From: Candidatus Faecalibacterium gallistercoris
GTDB lineage: Bacteria; Bacillota; Clostridia; Oscillospirales; Ruminococcaceae
Length of the DNA stretch: 50,120 nt
Reading direction: 5' to 3'
Assembly (NCBI GenBank): GCA_019116585.1
Contig: DXBJ01000046.1
Span: 1-50,120 of the forward strand
Position numbers and translations under genes: made by a program. Shown one piece after another: positions 39,947 to 46,431 of the stretch (positions are counted from its first letter, which is position 1; the number at the start of each line of letters is the position of its first letter). The notes under the pieces are model-generated. The model did no database searches. It was not told the origin of the DNA and saw nothing but the letters and a program-made list of their open reading frames with translations.

Positions 39947-40021
39947 ACCGGCCTTCCCGGCCCGCTCCGCCCTCTTTCCGGCGCCTGCCGGGGACCCGCC
40001 AAAATTTTTTTCAAAAAACAG

Positions 40022-40050
40022 TTGACAAACGGCCCCGCAGATGGTAGAAT
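40022..40050 (+). promoter_or_regulatory. Promoter of tRNA-Arg
   Basis: TTGACA (40022-40027) and TAGAAT (40045-40050) with a 17-base spacer. Confidence 0.88.
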
Positions 40051-40086
40051 ATATCTCGTTCCGGACAGAACACAAACGGAACGTAT

Positions 40087-40163
40087 GCGTTGGTAGCTCA
40101 GCTGGATAGAGTGACTGACTACGAATCAGTAGGCCGGGGGTTCGAGTCCCTTCCATCGCACCA
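40087..40163 (+). tRNA. tRNA-Arg (anticodon ACG)
   Basis: A 77-base cloverleaf with encoded CCA. Acceptor GCGTTGG/CCATCGC has one T-T mismatch at the fourth pair. The anticodon stem ACTGA/TCAGT holds the loop CTACGAA with ACG. The T arm is GGGGG-TTCGAGT-CCCTT, with two G-T pairs. The gene is intact and preceded by a strong promoter. A mobile element begins at its 3' end. Confidence 0.95.
40137..40163 (+). other. Probable left attachment site (attL) of the integrated element
   Basis: The 3' part of tRNA-Arg (T loop through CCA) directly adjoins element DNA with an outward-located tyrosine integrase gene ending 81 bases away. Integrases of this class use tRNA 3' ends. The exact crossover and the matching attR, beyond the right edge, cannot be seen. 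Confidence 0.65.
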
Positions 40164-40207
40164 AAATCCCACGAAGAATCGAAAGGTTCTCCGTGGGATT
40201 TTTGTTT
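40164..40207. terminator. Terminator after tRNA-Arg and of the integrase gene
   Basis: AAAATCCCACG pairs with CGTGGGATTTT, with an inner AGAA/TTCT arm. TTTGTTTTTG follows on the plus strand. Confidence 0.85.
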
Positions 40208-40243
40208 TTGTGGTGCGGCAGGCTACTAAAATTCAACTTGCGT

Positions 40244-41650
40244 TCAACTCGATGGATCTTCTGCTTTTTTGTCAAAGACATCAGCCAGGATGTCGGCGCT
40301 TTTTTTGTCAGCCTGCTCCATGACATGGGCGTAGATATTGCTGGTGGTGCTCACCTGCGCATGGCCCAGCCGGGCAGAGACACTGACGCTGTCCATTCCT
40401 TTATAGAACAGCAGGCTGGCCATCGAATGCCGGAAGGCATGGGGATTGATATGAGGCAAACCATGCCGCTTGCTGAACCGGTCCAGCCAGGTGTTGACCG
40501 AATCCGGGTGCATGGGAGAACCGTCCTCCTGCGCAAAGAGAAAATTTTGATCCCGGTAGTAGTTTCCCAAGCGTTTGATCTCCACCTCCTGGCACTTCTT
40601 ATATTGTCTGAGAAGTTCCATCGTCTGGGGCGGCAGCGCAATGGTGCGTTTGGACTTCTCTGTTTTGGGGGTGTCTTCATATAGGCCTACGCCGGGCACA
40701 TACAGAACGTTGTTGTCAATGCGGATGGTACCTTGTTCAAAATCCACACGGTCCCATTTCAGGCCCATCAATTCCCCACGGCGGCACCCACTCATCATAA
40801 GAATGGTGATCATGGTGCGCCATTTAATGTCCTCTTTTTCCAGGGCATCCTGGATTTTAATCAGTTCTTTTGGCTGGAAGTGGTTTACCTCTTTATGCTG
40901 TATTTTCGGCAGTGTAGCTCTTTTTGCTACATTCTGAACAACCAGCCCTTCCTTGACCGCATGTTCCAGCACCATCGAAATCATCCTGTGGTAGTGCTGG
41001 ATGGTATTGGCCGAGAGGGTATTCACCTTCCGCTCTGTGGTGAAAACTTCTTCCAACTCCATGTTCAATCCTTTACAGATGGCGAGAGCTTTCTTTACAG
41101 GAGTTGGATTCCCTTTCACAATGAGATAAACCGTATTGAGCGACACACCAGAGCGCTCTGCCAGCTCCTTTCGGGTCATTCCCTTATTGTTTAAAATTGC
41201 CGGTAAGTTTTTGGCAACCGCCATATTCTGCTCTACGCCAGAGCCTTCTTCTTCCAGTTGCATATAGAACGCATTCAGATGGTCAGGCCGCAGATCTTTC
41301 AGCAGAATATGACCGATGGCCTTATATGTACGGGGAATGAGGTAACGATATCCTTTGAGAGTTGTCTGCTTTGTTCCTGATCGTTTTTTCAGTTCAAGAA
41401 CGTAATCACAGTATTGGTCAAAACGTTGGCGGGCGTTTTCCAGACTCCCTTCTTTCACTTCCTTTTCCAGGGTGGCAGCATAGGCCTCTGCCTTTTTGCG
41501 GGCGCTCTTCTCACTCCAGGTCGGCTTGACCTCGAAGGTAGCGGTGAAGGGCTTGAGCTGTTTGCCGTCCGGTCCGCGTCCACGGAAGATGCGGATGGAA
41601 TAGGAAATCAGTTTGCCGTCTTTATTCCGGCGCTCCTGTAAATTGGCCAT
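40244..41650 (-). CDS. Tyrosine-type site-specific integrase with embedded HTH domain
   Basis: A 468-residue integrase. An N-terminal arm-binding domain (about 1-65) is followed by a core-binding domain (about 70-245), which is interrupted at about 147-203 by a Cro/CI-like HTH (KGMTRKELAERSGVSLNTVY). The catalytic domain has Arg291 in GCRRGELMG, His404 and Arg407 in HAFRHSM, His430 in GHAQ, and the nucleophile Tyr440 in SNIYAHVM. ATG 41650 follows AAGGAGG. It is adjacent to the tRNA-Arg attachment site. The HTH could link integration to transcriptional control, which is inference. Confidence 0.95.
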   Translation of the reverse strand: MANLQERRNKDGKLISYSIRIFRGRGPDGKQLKPFTATFEVKPTWSEKSARKKAEAYAATLEKEVKEGSLENARQRFDQYCDYVLELKKRSGTKQTTLKGYRYLIPRTYKAIGHILLKDLRPDHLNAFYMQLEEEGSGVEQNMAVAKNLPAILNNKGMTRKELAERSGVSLNTVYLIVKGNPTPVKKALAICKGLNMELEEVFTTERKVNTLSANTIQHYHRMISMVLEHAVKEGLVVQNVAKRATLPKIQHKEVNHFQPKELIKIQDALEKEDIKWRTMITILMMSGCRRGELMGLKWDRVDFEQGTIRIDNNVLYVPGVGLYEDTPKTEKSKRTIALPPQTMELLRQYKKCQEVEIKRLGNYYRDQNFLFAQEDGSPMHPDSVNTWLDRFSKRHGLPHINPHAFRHSMASLLFYKGMDSVSVSARLGHAQVSTTSNIYAHVMEQADKKSADILADVFDKKAEDPSS

Positions 41651-41690
41651 TGAAAAAGTCCTCCTTATTTACTATCTTGGTAATAAAGAA

Positions 41691-41758: not shown

Positions 41759-41986
41759 TCAAGCTGCTGGCGGGATGGGTTTGCAGCCGTTGGTGATAAA
41801 GGCGAGCACATCCTCATAGAGAACGAGCGCCTTGTTGCCGCAGCGAATAGAAGGAATCAAACCCTCTTTAACCCAGGCACGGAGAGCGGACTCTCCGATG
41901 CGGTAACCCTCTTCCTGAAGGCGGCGGTAGATCTCGTGGATGGACCCGCACTGGACAGGGCCGGTTGCATACTTACTCAGTTTCAT
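41759..41986 (-). CDS. Excisionase-like small DNA-binding protein
   Basis: A 75-residue protein from ATG 41986, 6 bases after AGGAGG. The winged-helix pattern GYRIGESALRAWVKEGLIPS followed by IRCGNKALVLYEDVLAFI resembles the MerR/excisionase-type fold. Its position next to the integrase suggests a role as recombination directionality factor. No close match can be named. Confidence 0.75.
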   Translation of the reverse strand: MKLSKYATGPVQCGSIHEIYRRLQEEGYRIGESALRAWVKEGLIPSIRCGNKALVLYEDVLAFITNGCKPIPPAA

Positions 41987-42038
41987 AAGCATCCTCCTAA
42001 ATGAACAACTCTGTTGACTTATATCAGATATCGCGTTT

Positions 42039-43715
42039 TCAATCATTTGGGATATCCGCTGTTTTTGCCGCTTTTTCCAGCGCCTCCAAGTCGAGCTTAT
42101 AGACGCGCGGCAGCTTTGGACCGTTTCCTATATGTACCTGATATGTACTCTTTTCATTGGAGTATAAGATGTTATATAGGGTCAGGTTCTTTACAATATC
42201 GTTGATGTTGCAGTTTTGGTAACCTGGCTGCTGTCTAACGCAGGTTTCCAGTGCTGCTTTTCGCAAGCAAAGATAACCATCATCCAGATCGGCTCCATCC
42301 ATCTGTGACAGCCTTTCTTCAAGCTTTTTCTTTTTATTGACGAGAGCGAATCTGCCCTTTTGGTATGCATTCCATAGAATTGCAGGGATGCTGGCCCGCT
42401 TTTGGTATGCGGCAAGCCGATTCAGATATAGCTGAGTCTCACTCCATGACCTGTTCAAAGCCGCATCGAGGCGATATTGGTATGTCTTCCGTTCTTCAGG
42501 CGGCATTCCTTCATTTTCTGCGGCGACCAACAGCAATTTGAACGCACAACGCAGTACCGTCAGATTGGTTCGGACACGCTGGTTATTACAGTTTTGAAGC
42601 ACTGCTGGCGGGTCCTGCAATTCCTCCTTGATATGATAGAGGAAGTTATCCCCCTGGTTGACAAACGTACACAAGAAAGCGTGCGCCGCACTTCCAGATA
42701 GTGCCGGCGTACAGTTGTTTGGTAGATGTAGCTGCCTGGTAATTGGTATCAGAATGCAGCGCTCCACATCGGACGCTTTGCCGAAGAGAAGCTCCGCAGT
42801 GAACAGGATGCCACCGATACACTGTTGCTGGCTCAATTTTCCACCTGGATTTCTACTGATGGGGTTGCCGTTGGCCCCTTCGCGGATCAGCTGTCCAGAG
42901 AGTTCCATACGCTTTTCCTGCGATTTAGAACTTGCACTATATGCAATGTCATCTATAATCAGCAGTTGATCGCGGTGTATCGTCGTGAGTTCCCGTGTGG
43001 ATGACAGCGTTGCCCCTGCATCAAAGAGGAGGGCGGGGCCTGCTTTGGGGTTATTTGCATATGCAAAAATACCTCCAAGCCTTTTTGCCGCAACCGTTTT
43101 GCCACAACCGTGTTCGCCATAGACCCAACCGACAGCTTGGAATTCGATGCCGCAACCCCGTATTGCGCTGAGGATCAGAGATAGATAGCTGTAAGATACG
43201 AGCAGATAGAGCTCATCCGGTTCGTTATAGATGCTATTCAGCAAGTGGGTCACGGGTTGTGCATTGTTGGTCCGAAGGAGCTTTAGTTTCTCTACCTGTG
43301 GGTCGATGACGTAACAGATCTGGGGATTGATCCCAATGGTCGTGTCTCCTTCTACCGCTACCCATGACTCGTTCGGCAGACGGTAGCATCCGTTCTTATC
43401 AAAGTACAAAGGAAGTTCGCCTTCCTTTTGCTGTTGGATGATGCTGCGTCTCAATGCCTCGCCGGCCTTCTTTTTTTCTTTTGCAGAGAGATCAGGCATG
43501 AGCTGAAGGCTCTCCATCAATTTTTTATAGCGGCAACATTCGTCCAGAGAAAGAACAGCTGTTTCATAGGACTTGCTGCCGATGTCGACAAAAATGATCG
43601 CGTGCGTAGATTCCCCATTGTATACGTTTCGGAGAGGAATCACAGCGATTTTTATCTCCGCTTTCGGGTTTTCATAGACCCAGTTCATCTGTGGTGGCCG
43701 CTTTGCGATGTTCAT
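42039..43715 (-). CDS. P-loop ATPase of mobile element (DUF927-like)
   Basis: A 558-residue protein. The Walker A motif is VGWVYGEHGCGKTVAAKRLG near residue 205, and Walker B is QLLIIDDIAYSASSKS. The order and spacing resemble DUF927/primase-associated helicase-like proteins of plasmids and integrative elements. A role in element replication is likely but not proven. The C-terminal 150 residues are basic and helical. ATG 43715 directly follows the stop of the small upstream gene, with GGAGGTG overlapping that gene, so they are coupled. Confidence 0.75.
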   Translation of the reverse strand: MNIAKRPPQMNWVYENPKAEIKIAVIPLRNVYNGESTHAIIFVDIGSKSYETAVLSLDECCRYKKLMESLQLMPDLSAKEKKKAGEALRRSIIQQQKEGELPLYFDKNGCYRLPNESWVAVEGDTTIGINPQICYVIDPQVEKLKLLRTNNAQPVTHLLNSIYNEPDELYLLVSYSYLSLILSAIRGCGIEFQAVGWVYGEHGCGKTVAAKRLGGIFAYANNPKAGPALLFDAGATLSSTRELTTIHRDQLLIIDDIAYSASSKSQEKRMELSGQLIREGANGNPISRNPGGKLSQQQCIGGILFTAELLFGKASDVERCILIPITRQLHLPNNCTPALSGSAAHAFLCTFVNQGDNFLYHIKEELQDPPAVLQNCNNQRVRTNLTVLRCAFKLLLVAAENEGMPPEERKTYQYRLDAALNRSWSETQLYLNRLAAYQKRASIPAILWNAYQKGRFALVNKKKKLEERLSQMDGADLDDGYLCLRKAALETCVRQQPGYQNCNINDIVKNLTLYNILYSNEKSTYQVHIGNGPKLPRVYKLDLEALEKAAKTADIPND

Positions 43716-43937
43716 TTACTTCACCTCCCCCGACAAAGTGCTTTGAGCATCAGCCGGAGGGCTGCACTCTGTTTTCGGGTCGGCGTCATTCTGCGCGGTT
43801 GTCTTTAATTCTGCGATCCAGCGCATGGCGTTGATTAAACTTTGCTGGTCGCCGAACGACAGCTCTCGCTTGCGTTCCTTCGTCTTGCGCTTTTTGGCGG
43901 GGTGGTCCTGATGATAGGGGACAAGTGGTGTCTTCAT
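43716..43937 (-). CDS. Small charged protein of unknown function
   Basis: A 73-residue protein from ATG 43937 behind AGGAGG. It is rich in Lys and Arg in the first half (AKKRKTKERKRELSFGDQQS) and acidic and Ser/Thr-rich in the second. Its TAA stop is directly followed by the ATG of the ATPase gene. No family is recognised. Confidence 0.7.
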   Translation of the reverse strand: MKTPLVPYHQDHPAKKRKTKERKRELSFGDQQSLINAMRWIAELKTTAQNDADPKTECSPPADAQSTLSGEVK

Positions 43938-44044
43938 GTTGCGTTACCTCCTGTGGTAGTTTTTAGTTCCAAGTTATACGGACAGTTTCATCTAAAACCA
44001 TAATATTTTTGCGTTCTTTTGTCGTAAAATGAGCATTTGACAAC

Positions 44045-44131
44045 AAAAAGGAGGCCTTGAAAGTAACACAAACAAACCCATATCGCTTGGAGCGATATAG
44101 CAAATTTGTTCGTGCTGCTTTCAAGGCCTCC
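44045..44131 (-). terminator. Long terminator hairpin at the end of the candidate RNA
   Basis: GGAGGCCTTGAAAG (44050-44063) pairs exactly with 44118-44131. Further pairing includes CAAACAAA/TTTGTT and the ATATCGCT/AGCGATAT tip. TTTTTGTTG follows on the minus strand. Confidence 0.8.
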
Positions 44132-44547
44132 GTATCACAACTTACTCTGAACCCAACCTGTGAAAATTGAGCGAGTCTAAGCAGAGCCATTTTTACGGTA
44201 ATTGCTACCACACTAACATAGCAATGAACCGGATCTTAGGCGGTCTGAAAAGAACACATTTTATATGATTTTAGATGGTTTGCTTATCCTTCCCAAAAAC
44301 CAGTCTTTCGACTGGAGATCCCTATCGGAATTTACTCGAGAAATAGGCAACTTCACACCAAGCATAGCCTGGTTTTAATCTGCACACAGGGCCCAACGTA
44401 TAGGCATCCCAAAAAGAATACCACCTCACTACAAGGCATCAACCCGGGCATGTTTCCTGTAACCTTAGTTGGCAGAACTGCACTTTTCATACAGAAATTA
44501 CGGAAGTGTTTTAGGACGAAGCAAACCTGCGCTCATGCATATAGCGC
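44045..44547 (-). ncRNA. Candidate large structured non-coding RNA
   Basis: This stretch has no convincing ORF on either strand. On the minus strand it starts about 7 bases after a good promoter. It ends in a very long hairpin (44050-44131: 14-bp outer stem GGAGGCCTTGAAAG, inner ATATCGCT-TGG-AGCGATAT) followed by five T. Internal hairpins include TGCGCT/AGCGCA at the start, CCAGTC-GAAA-GACTGG (a GNRA tetraloop) and CCTAT/ATAGG. The predicted length, about 500 bases, is like that of large ornate RNAs of mobile elements (ROOL, GOLLD, OLE), but no assignment is possible by eye. Confidence 0.55.
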
Positions 44548-44553
44548 AAGTCT

Positions 44554-44582
44554 ATATTACCACATATGGCCTTAATATGCAA
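44554..44582 (-). promoter_or_regulatory. Promoter of the candidate RNA
   Basis: TTGCAT (44577-44582) and TAATAT (44554-44559) with a 17-base spacer on the minus strand. Confidence 0.65.
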
Positions 44583-44655
44583 CCCATATGTTAATGTTTT
44601 TTTGCATTTTAAAAGTAGAGGGTGCCCCATGATTTTTATGGTACTATTATTTTTC

Positions 44656-44704
44656 AAAAAAATCTGGGCTTTCTGGGTCAAAATCCAGAAAGCCCAGATT
44701 TTTA
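44656..44704 (-). terminator. Terminator of the recombination gene cluster
   Basis: A perfect 16-bp stem (AATCTGGGCTTTCTGG, 44661-44676, against 44685-44700) with an 8-base loop, T-rich on both sides. It directly adjoins the stop codon at 44705 and isolates the candidate RNA gene from the genes to the right. Confidence 0.92.
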
Positions 44705-45469
44705 TCAAGCAGTTTCCAGCTTTTCTACCACTTCGCTCCCATTCATCGCCTCCATGAACTGTTTGGCGAAGGCTTTGGCGCTGGCAGCTTCTTCGGGACT
44801 GAGGGCGCTGACCGCCTCAAAGTGGAAGAGGGCGTAGGGCTTGCCGCCCCGACTGGTGGCTTTCTGCAGGGTGATCCGGGTGACCACGCCGTTCAGTGGA
44901 GTCAGTGAGCTGGTGAGCCGGGCCGCATACTTGAGGAACAGCCCCTTGCTGGTCACTGGAACCCGCACCAACAGGGGCAACACGTTGCCCGGCCGCAGCA
45001 GGAACAGCAATACCGACTCCTTGCAGGCCTTGGCACCCGTTTCCCCGTCTTTCGAGCCATAGTCGTTGAAGGGGCAGTGAGCGCAGGCCTTGCCGTCCTC
45101 TGAGACAAGGCTGTTGTGGCTGAGACAGGTAGGCGGCGTGCCCTCCACCGGGTCGGGGGTATCCCAGTAGGCCCGAGGGGTGGTATAATCCAGGATGATG
45201 CCGGTGAGTTCCTTTTCGGCCTCATCCCCGGCCAGCCCCGGCACTGTAAACACAGTCGAGCCGCCGGAGGGCGACTTGACCACGTCAAACATCTGGTAGG
45301 TCAAGGGCTGCTCCTTGAGGTTTTCCCGGATCAGATCCAGGGTATTGCCATTGAGGGCGGCATAGCCGCTTTCAACAGGGACAAGACTGGCCGGTTCCCT
45401 TTCGGCAGGGGCCTCCTGCAGGGCCTGAGCCTTGGTGGCAAGACGGGATTTCAGTTTTGTGTTGTCCAT
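44705..45469 (-). CDS. Conserved-type mobile-element protein with a Cys cluster
   Basis: A 254-residue protein from ATG 45469 behind AAGGAGG. It has four cysteines spaced C-x13-C-x2-C-x16-C (in CLSHNSL, KACAHCPFND and KACKES), a likely metal site. The region RPGNVLPLLVRVPVTSKGLF follows. It precedes the candidate RNA and follows the YqaJ nuclease gene by 20 bases. In many phages, YqaJ is paired with a single-strand annealing or binding protein; this gene is placed accordingly but shows no clear RecT motif. Function unknown. Confidence 0.75.
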   Translation of the reverse strand: MDNTKLKSRLATKAQALQEAPAEREPASLVPVESGYAALNGNTLDLIRENLKEQPLTYQMFDVVKSPSGGSTVFTVPGLAGDEAEKELTGIILDYTTPRAYWDTPDPVEGTPPTCLSHNSLVSEDGKACAHCPFNDYGSKDGETGAKACKESVLLFLLRPGNVLPLLVRVPVTSKGLFLKYAARLTSSLTPLNGVVTRITLQKATSRGGKPYALFHFEAVSALSPEEAASAKAFAKQFMEAMNGSEVVEKLETA

Positions 45470-45489
45470 GGTGTAATACCTCCTTGTGT

Positions 45490-46431
45490 TCATATAGCTT
45501 TGACGGAGAAGCGCCGGTAGCTGCTCTTGCTGGCATACTTCTTATAAAGGGTTGGGTGTTCGGCTTTCAGCGTTTTGCTGTCCAGACGTTCCTGTGTGAC
45601 ATTTTTCCATGTAACGATGTGGTCGCCGGTGGTGCCGGACTCATGCTCCCCCAGCATTTGCTTCAACAGATTTTCAGCCTGCTGCTTCTGCTCTGTGATT
45701 GCTTTGAGTTGTTCACAAGCCTCATCGTACTGCCGAATCAAGGTGGCGGCCTGGCCGGGAAGTTCCACCGTGGACCGGGGCAGGCTGCTTGGAAAGCACT
45801 CGGCCAGAAACTTGGCCGAGGCGCTGGAACCGTCGAGAGGCGGCGGGGTCTTATTTTGGACGTGCTTCCAGAAGTCTGCTTCGAGCTGAATCAGGGCTTC
45901 GATCAACTCGTCATCCCGGTGGATGAGCTTCCACCGGAAGTTGTTGCCTCCGATCAGGGCGGCGACGTATGCGCCCCGGTAACCGGTCACGGCCATATAA
46001 TGCTGGACCTGCAGGTAGTACTCGTCCGGGATGCCGTCCTCCCACTCCCCGGCCTTGAAAGCCGAGACGGTTTTAGCCTCGAAAACGCAGGGCCCCAGAT
46101 CGGGCTGCCGGCAGGTGCCGTCCAGATTGGCCTGCATAAAGGGGTGCTGGTCGCTGCGCAGAAGCTCCATTCGGTGCTCCACCTGGATGCCGGTGCGCTT
46201 GGTAAATTCGGTCCGCACCAGCTCTTCCAGCTGATGGCCCCAGTAGGCGGCTTCCCCTGCCTCCTGTGCTGGGAGCTGTCCGGTTTTCTCCATCCAGAGT
46301 TCCACCGGCGACTTGTACCGGCTGACCCCACAGACCACAGCGGCGTCTGAGCCGCCGATCCCCTCCTTGCGACATTCCAGCCATTCCTCATAGGGCATGG
46401 CTGCGGTGTTGGCAATGACTGTAAATGACAT
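45490..46431 (-). CDS. YqaJ-like viral recombinase (exonuclease)
   Basis: A 313-residue PD-(D/E)XK nuclease of the lambda exonuclease/YqaJ family. Motifs are WLECRKEGIGGSDAAVVCGV, WGHQLEELVRTEF, the catalytic region ANLDGTCRQPDLGPCVFEAK (Asp and Glu-x-Lys) and YYLQVQHYMAVTG. ATG 46431 follows GGAGGGA. It likely processes DNA ends for recombination of the element. A C-terminal coiled coil (about 220-265, EACEQLKAITEQKQQAENLL) is present. Confidence 0.92.
   Translation of the reverse strand: MSFTVIANTAAMPYEEWLECRKEGIGGSDAAVVCGVSRYKSPVELWMEKTGQLPAQEAGEAAYWGHQLEELVRTEFTKRTGIQVEHRMELLRSDQHPFMQANLDGTCRQPDLGPCVFEAKTVSAFKAGEWEDGIPDEYYLQVQHYMAVTGYRGAYVAALIGGNNFRWKLIHRDDELIEALIQLEADFWKHVQNKTPPPLDGSSASAKFLAECFPSSLPRSTVELPGQAATLIRQYDEACEQLKAITEQKQQAENLLKQMLGEHESGTTGDHIVTWKNVTQERLDSKTLKAEHPTLYKKYASKSSYRRFSVKAI

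What the first reader, a model, noticed from the sequence alone, without database searches (positions are those of the whole stretch)
44042..44582. Candidate ~500-nt structured RNA gene in the mobile element
A gene-free stretch has a well-spaced promoter at one end and a long, perfect terminator hairpin at the other, with several internal hairpins including a GAAA tetraloop. It is walled off from neighbouring genes by another 16-bp terminator. Large ornate RNAs are known from mobile elements, and this could be one or a new class.
Basis: partly seen in the sequence, partly recalled or inferred. Interest (0 to 1): 0.8.

Follow-up and report, generated by a model that had tools for sequence, protein, structure and literature searches.

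The report
Orphan non-coding transcript beside excision genes
A 500-base stretch without protein genes in a bacterial mobile element looks like its own small transcript, but no relative of it was found, its fold is no better than chance, and it is more likely an ordinary control region for the neighbouring excision genes than a new class of large RNA.

Summary
The layout is real and lies on the minus strand. A promoter-like site (44582-44554), overlapped by a perfect 8+8 bp palindrome, is followed by about 415 non-coding bases and an 82-nt hairpin with a T5 tail (44131-44045). A second long terminator (44708-44653) closes off the upstream gene. The downstream operon (small ORF, P-loop ATPase, excisionase-like gene, integrase at tRNA-Arg) has its own promoter-like site, so a stand-alone or leader transcript is plausible.

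"Large structured RNA" is not supported. Most of the folding signal is the terminator: 13 of 160 shuffles fold as stably as the body alone, and 8 of 40 control windows score as low. The GAAA hairpin is followed by T5 and could itself terminate. Rfam gives no match at its cut-offs here. No credible homolog appeared by blastn, exact words, or a 251-nt covariance model over 396 family and 255 class genomes, so covariation cannot be tested.

Best guess (0.35): a regulatory leader RNA of the excision operon, placed like canT, the ~452-nt cis antiterminator before xis in Tn916, though without detected sequence similarity to one Tn916-like region tested. Equal rival (0.35): a non-functional or purely DNA-level control region.

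The parts
44653..44708 (-). terminator of the upstream gene 44705-45493; walls off the unit
   Evidence: inverted repeat, 24-nt arms 92% complementary, T-run
44562..44591 (.). perfect palindrome ACATATGG-N14-CCATATGT over the promoter, operator-like
   Evidence: only copy in the window at up to 3 mismatches, 6 of 100 whole-window shuffles have one; 26 of 1000 shuffles of the 65-nt promoter region hold such an 8+8 repeat, 38 of 500 for the whole stretch
44554..44582 (-). promoter-like site TTGCAT-17-TAATAT, extended -10 TG
   Evidence: sequence; 7 such sites in 50 kb; 59 of 2000 shuffles
44132..44547 (-). non-coding body; start inferred about 7 nt after the -10 site
   Evidence: no recognisable protein among nine ORFs tested; no homolog found
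44277..44527 (-). predicted domain closed by a long-range helix (44527-44513 with 44290-44277); basis of covariance model R1
   Evidence: single-sequence prediction, 9-bp part with mean pair probability 0.97; a comparable long-range helix occurs in 36 of 160 shuffles
44295..44315 (-). GAAA-capped 6-bp hairpin followed by TTTTT; possible internal terminator
   Evidence: terminator scan; pair probability 0.98
44045..44131 (-). 82-nt near-perfect hairpin with T5 tail, terminator
   Evidence: inverted repeat 27-nt arms, 89%; z = -9.95
44248..44277 (+). inverted near-copy of the downstream operon's promoter segment
   Evidence: 25 of 32 columns identical to 43989-44020 (-); 14 of 1000 or 26 of 1000 shuffles score as high, by scoring scheme
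43989..44020 (-). partner of that inverted repeat, overlapping the downstream promoter
44000..44028 (-). promoter-like site TTTACG-17-TATTAT of the downstream operon
   Evidence: 9 of 12 consensus, weak: 3 such sites found in the region against 1.9 expected
43716..43937 (-). small ORF, 73 aa, preceded by AGGAGG
   Evidence: no Pfam or PHROG family
42039..43715 (-). P-loop ATPase-like protein, 558 aa
   Evidence: no Pfam, PHROG, NCBIfam or PADLOC family; weak RadA match in PDB, E = 0.041; Walker A read by eye
41759..42046 (-). excisionase-like small HTH protein
   Evidence: HTH_17 E = 1.2e-4, below Pfam's cut-off; PHROG 12885, unknown function
40244..41650 (-). tyrosine integrase with an HTH_26 segment at aa 148-206
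40087..40163 (+). tRNA-Arg, likely attachment site

Best explanation
A non-coding transcript of about 500 nt starts near 44547 on the minus strand and normally stops at the 82-nt hairpin (44131-44045). It most likely serves as a regulatory leader of the operon just beyond that hairpin (small ORF, ATPase, excisionase-like gene, integrase), so that readthrough or termination sets how much excision machinery is made. A repressor binding the palindrome over the promoter would keep it off while the element is integrated. This would work like canT, the 452-nt RNA between orf8 and xis of Tn916 that acts in cis as an antiterminator. Shown: layout, strand, lack of recognisable protein, terminators, promoter-like sites, order of genes. 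Inferred: transcription, readthrough, repression, any antitermination.
For: Promoter-like site, palindrome and terminator in order. Same direction as and directly upstream of the ATPase-xis-int operon at the end of the element next to tRNA-Arg, the place canT holds before xis in Tn916 (PMC11658703, passages). A 32-column inverted near-copy links the body with the downstream promoter segment, and pairs with it in the predicted fold of a readthrough RNA (14 or 26 of 1000 shuffles, found post hoc). In a sister element of the same genome the same slot holds another small gene that resembles a regulator (L078 1748-2029; 25% identity over 52 aa to the HTH part of the window's integrase, E = 0.047).
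Against: No transcript data. No homolog. The downstream operon has its own promoter-like site and Shine-Dalgarno. The sister element has no terminator of that direction in its leader. The duplex between body and the leader from its likely start is no better than shuffles (183 of 300). A terminator with so long a stem right after an antiterminator is odd: a paper title seen in a reference list says that very long stems resist processive antitermination (paper not held). No similarity to the corresponding slot of one Tn916-like element: best blastn 20 nt at 85%, E = 0.065, nhmmer and model R1 nothing.
Confidence: 0.35

Rival explanations
1. No functional RNA: a gene-free control or leftover region whose working parts are DNA sites (palindrome, inverted promoter copy) and two terminators insulating neighbouring operons.
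For: Body fold is ordinary (13 of 160 shuffles as stable; 8 of 40 control windows as low). No homolog found (and others). GC 0.419 against 0.49-0.60 for the neighbouring genes measured, and the slot differs between sister elements. Promoter-like sites of this quality arise in 59 of 2000 shuffles.
Against: Promoter, gene-free body and very strong terminator in one direction between two walls is more orderly than a leftover needs to be.
Confidence: 0.35
2. A stand-alone trans-acting or large structured RNA, possibly a new class, comparable in place and size to ROOL or GOLLD.
For: Size about 500 nt, own promoter-like site and terminator, mobile element, several helices with pair probability 0.97-0.99. 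Fold stability does not exclude it: RNase P of the same genome has z = -0.49.
Against: No Rfam match at gathering and only sub-threshold ones at relaxed E. No homolog in 396 family and 255 class genomes with the 251-nt covariance model (run with stricter filters). Possible internal terminator at 44315-44295 would cut the RNA in half.
Confidence: 0.15
3. A messenger for a tiny hydrophobic peptide (32 aa, 44451-44353), as in type I toxin-antitoxin systems.
For: AGGA four bases before an ATG; hydrophobic centre, best 15-residue Kyte-Doolittle mean 1.87.
Against: 104 of 500 shuffles have a Shine-Dalgarno ORF of at least 32 aa. No Pfam or PHROG match for the longer frame that contains it. No antisense partner seen.
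Confidence: 0.05

Closest known systems
canT of Tn916 (conjugation-associated antitermination RNA; PMC11658703, passages seen)
   Same: About 400-450 nt, non-coding, upstream of xis-int and read in their direction, in an integrative element of a Gram-positive bacterium.
   Different: No sequence similarity to the orf8-xis slot of one Tn916-like element (L092; this is not Tn916 itself). Here a strong terminator follows at once, and a small ORF and an ATPase gene stand between it and the excisionase-like gene. Antitermination not tested.
ROOL and GOLLD (PMC12286853, passages seen)
   Same: Non-coding, several hundred nt, in mobile DNA; a tRNA is nearby (tRNA-Arg, about 4 kb away), but as an attachment site.
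   Different: No Rfam match. Those are in phages and prophages, often near tRNA islands, with many members and covariation; this one is an orphan.
conAn2, EAR and put antiterminator RNAs (PMC8955417 and PMC11658703, passages seen)
   Same: RNA parts at the start of operons full of terminators.
   Different: No conAn1 gene identified beside it; no conAn, EAR or put sequences were fetched, so sequence was compared only through Rfam, and which of these Rfam holds was not checked.

Membership tests
ROOL | match to the Rfam model RF03087 | tested here: not met
   Not listed by cmscan on the stretch at E<=5. A genome-wide run found none, but its 14 control genomes rang in 0, so that run is uninformative.
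GOLLD | match to the Rfam model RF02032 | tested here: not met
   Not listed at E<=5; none in the whole genome at E<=10.
OLE, HEARO, raiA | match to their Rfam models | tested here: not met
   None among the 21 sub-threshold matches or at gathering. No positive control was run for them.
ornate large RNA (as a kind) | conserved complex secondary structure with compensatory changes | not testable with these tools
   No homolog found to align.
canT-type antiterminator | non-coding stretch of about 450 nt upstream of xis-int, same direction | tested here: met
   Gene order and direction; canT description from passages. Two genes stand between it and the xis-like gene here, which is not so in Tn916.
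canT-type antiterminator | sequence similarity to canT | tested here: inconclusive
   No similarity to the slot in L092, a Tn916-like element identified by gene order only. Tn916's own canT was not fetched.
canT-type antiterminator | cis antitermination activity | not testable with these tools
   needs a terminator reporter assay
type I toxin messenger | translated small hydrophobic peptide plus antisense antitoxin | tested here: inconclusive
   32-aa ORF with AGGA; 104 of 500 shuffles have one as long; no family match for the frame.

The most novel reading that the evidence does not exclude
A new family of about 450-nt cis-acting RNA that couples transcription of an excision operon to the state of an integrative element by antitermination or attenuation, in a gut-type Firmicute lineage unrelated in sequence to canT, conAn2, EAR or put, and carried as an exchangeable module with its ATPase and excisionase genes.
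Probability: 0.12. Interest if true: 0.65.

Novelty: new member of a known kind. Interest (0 to 1): 0.27.

Why it matters
If it is a canT-like leader, RNA-based control of excision would be commoner in integrative elements than the few described cases, and would be hidden by lack of sequence similarity. If it is nothing, it shows how easily one strong terminator makes an ordinary gene-free stretch look like a large structured RNA: the folding score falls from z = -7.7 to about -2 when the hairpin is left out.

Tried and rejected
Homolog searches that gave nothing credible. blastn in 150 relatives: own genome plus one 27-nt match, E = 5.3e-4, not followed up. blastn in 394 order genomes: own only. 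Phages: 2 records at E = 0.7. Plasmids: none. E. coli: none. Exact words in viral contigs: 10, 33, 0 and 2 hits. Exact 19-mer in genome contigs: 4 hits. Around the word hits nhmmer found only the window's own copy, and blastn showed short pieces only (longest 33 nt at 85%, best 40 rows looked at; 19-20 nt; 19-21 nt). Covariance model R1: own copy plus 11.1 bits in L027 among 34 held sources; own copy plus 17.1 bits, per-genome E = 0.024, in G261 among 396 family genomes, about what 396 genomes give by chance; nothing else at E<=0.001 in 255 class genomes; nothing new in 15 loci. Samples of genomes overlap. R1 rests on one sequence entered twice and on a predicted structure.

Neighbour route: the upstream protein (44705-45493) has relatives in 8 of 297 family genomes including the own one and 2 viral contigs. 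The 14 stretches read around relatives hold no similar sequence beyond 14-nt words. The ATPase has distant relatives in 2 of 297, none in viral contigs, plasmids or phages. Integrase and excisionase searches of viral contigs confirmed none.

Rejected: antisense to the operon leader from its likely start (183 of 300 shuffles as good); toxin messenger (104 of 500 shuffles); iterons or a replication origin (only two-copy short repeats); a defence hotspot after the upstream gene (of 9 neighbour proteins from relatives scanned with PADLOC, 3 gave weak matches, two of these conjugation coupling proteins by Pfam).

Literature: eight searches showed no description of this RNA in the rows listed. The library holds open-licence papers only, so this is not proof that it is unpublished.

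Full report
What is there. On the minus strand, reading from the gene 44705-45493 (PHROG 23155, unknown function) towards the integrase, one meets a long terminator (44708-44653), a promoter-like site TTGCAT-17-TAATAT with an extended -10 (44582-44554) under a perfect ACATATGG-N14-CCATATGT palindrome (44591-44562), about 415 bases with no recognisable protein, and an 82-nt hairpin with five T (44131-44045). Then come another promoter-like site (44028-44000, 9 of 12; three such sites found in the region against 1.9 expected), an AGGAGG and a 73-aa ORF, a 558-aa P-loop ATPase-like protein, an excisionase-like protein and a tyrosine integrase beside tRNA-Arg.

How much is beyond chance. The terminators are. 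The promoter is weakly so: 7 such sites in 50 kb on both strands, 59 of 2000 shuffles of the stretch. The palindrome is weakly so: 26 of 1000 shuffles of the 65-nt promoter region, 38 of 500 for the whole stretch. The fold of the body is not. With the terminator the unit has z = -7.74 (other strand -4.89). Without it z is -2.08, while 40 control windows of the window have mean -0.95 and SD 1.71, 8 of them as low or lower; 2 of 14 further windows within the element are lower too. In a second test 13 of 160 shuffles fold as stably, 43 of 160 have as much high-confidence pairing, and 36 of 160 have as long a long-range helix. This does not disprove a structured RNA, since RNase P from the same genome has z = -0.49 and its reverse complement -2.51; it means that the fold gives no evidence either way. 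The GAAA hairpin is followed by TTTTT and scores as terminator-like, so the transcript may often stop near 44295.

Known families. Rfam at its cut-offs finds only the tRNA in the whole window. At relaxed thresholds 21 matches appear, all below their gathering scores and mostly eukaryotic miRNA hairpin models lying on the two terminators; the best is MIR781, E = 8.9e-5, 34.7 bits against 88 needed. ROOL, GOLLD, OLE, HEARO and raiA are not among them. A genome-wide ROOL run is uninformative because no control rang; a GOLLD run found none.

Relatives. None credible was found: by blastn in 150 relatives and 394 order genomes, in phages, plasmids and E. coli; by exact words in viral and genome contigs (checked); or by a covariance model of the predicted 251-nt domain in 396 family and 255 class genomes. 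The model rests on one sequence and a predicted structure, the large runs used stricter filters, and metagenome contigs could not be scanned, so a diverged family could have been missed.

Setting. The slot is part of an exchangeable module. In another contig of the same genome (C32) the upstream gene is 93% identical, the excisionase-like gene 80% and the ATPase 28%. DNA similarity to the upstream side stops at 44698, seven bases inside the end of the upstream gene, at the terminator. The slot there holds a 93-aa gene on the other strand that resembles the HTH part of the window's integrase weakly (25% over 52 aa, E = 0.047). In a genome of the same genus (G012) the integrase is 99.4% identical at the same tRNA-Arg (97.7% DNA identity over 40000-41666), but the excisionase is 62% and the ATPase 26%; its contig ends before the slot.

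Mechanism. The closest working model is Tn916. There, between orf8 and xis, lies canT, a 452-nt region that acts in cis and in one orientation as an antiterminator, most likely as RNA, with a complex predicted fold (PMC11658703, passages). The window's stretch has similar size, direction and place, and its body contains an inverted near-copy (25 of 32 columns) of the downstream promoter segment that pairs with it in the predicted fold of a readthrough RNA (14 or 26 of 1000 shuffles by scoring scheme, found post hoc). Against it: the terminator follows at once and has a very long stem, two genes stand before the excisionase-like gene, the sister element shows no such terminator, and there is no similarity to the corresponding slot of one Tn916-like element in Enterococcus faecalis. 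I therefore commit to a regulatory leader of the excision operon at 0.35, with a non-functional or DNA-only control region at 0.35, a stand-alone structured RNA at 0.15 and a toxin-type messenger at 0.05.

Verdict. As an orphan regulatory stretch in an integrative element it is of modest interest (0.27). The most novel reading still open, a new cis-acting antiterminator family, gets 0.12.

Noticed in passing
L092 1206-1262 (NZ_CP143580.1, Enterococcus faecalis plasmid): The Rfam pemK RNA motif (RF02913, 53.1 bits against 34.8 needed) lies between the orf8-like and xis-like genes of a Tn916-like element, the slot where canT sits in Tn916. A 421-base query over it matches 52 plasmid records, all Enterococcus, 36 typed conjugative (8 rows seen). 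The motif may be part of an antiterminator RNA; the canT paper does not mention pemK or Rfam.
   Followed up: partly
40244-41650: The integrase carries a Cro/C1-type HTH (HTH_26, aa 148-206). By eye the sister integrase on contig C32 lacks it, while that element has a separate small gene that may be an HTH regulator (E = 0.047).
   Followed up: partly
40000-41666 and L077 740-2406: Same-genus genome G012 has the same integrase (99.4%) at the same tRNA-Arg but a different excisionase and ATPase; DNA similarity stops just upstream of the integrase start, suggesting module exchange.
   Followed up: partly
44698: Sister element on C32 keeps the upstream genes at 93.7% DNA identity over 1705 bp, ending abruptly at the terminator after 44705-45493.
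   Followed up: partly
L080 (G323:C130): The relative of the upstream protein in this genome has an internal stop codon in the aligned stretch; not examined.
   Followed up: no
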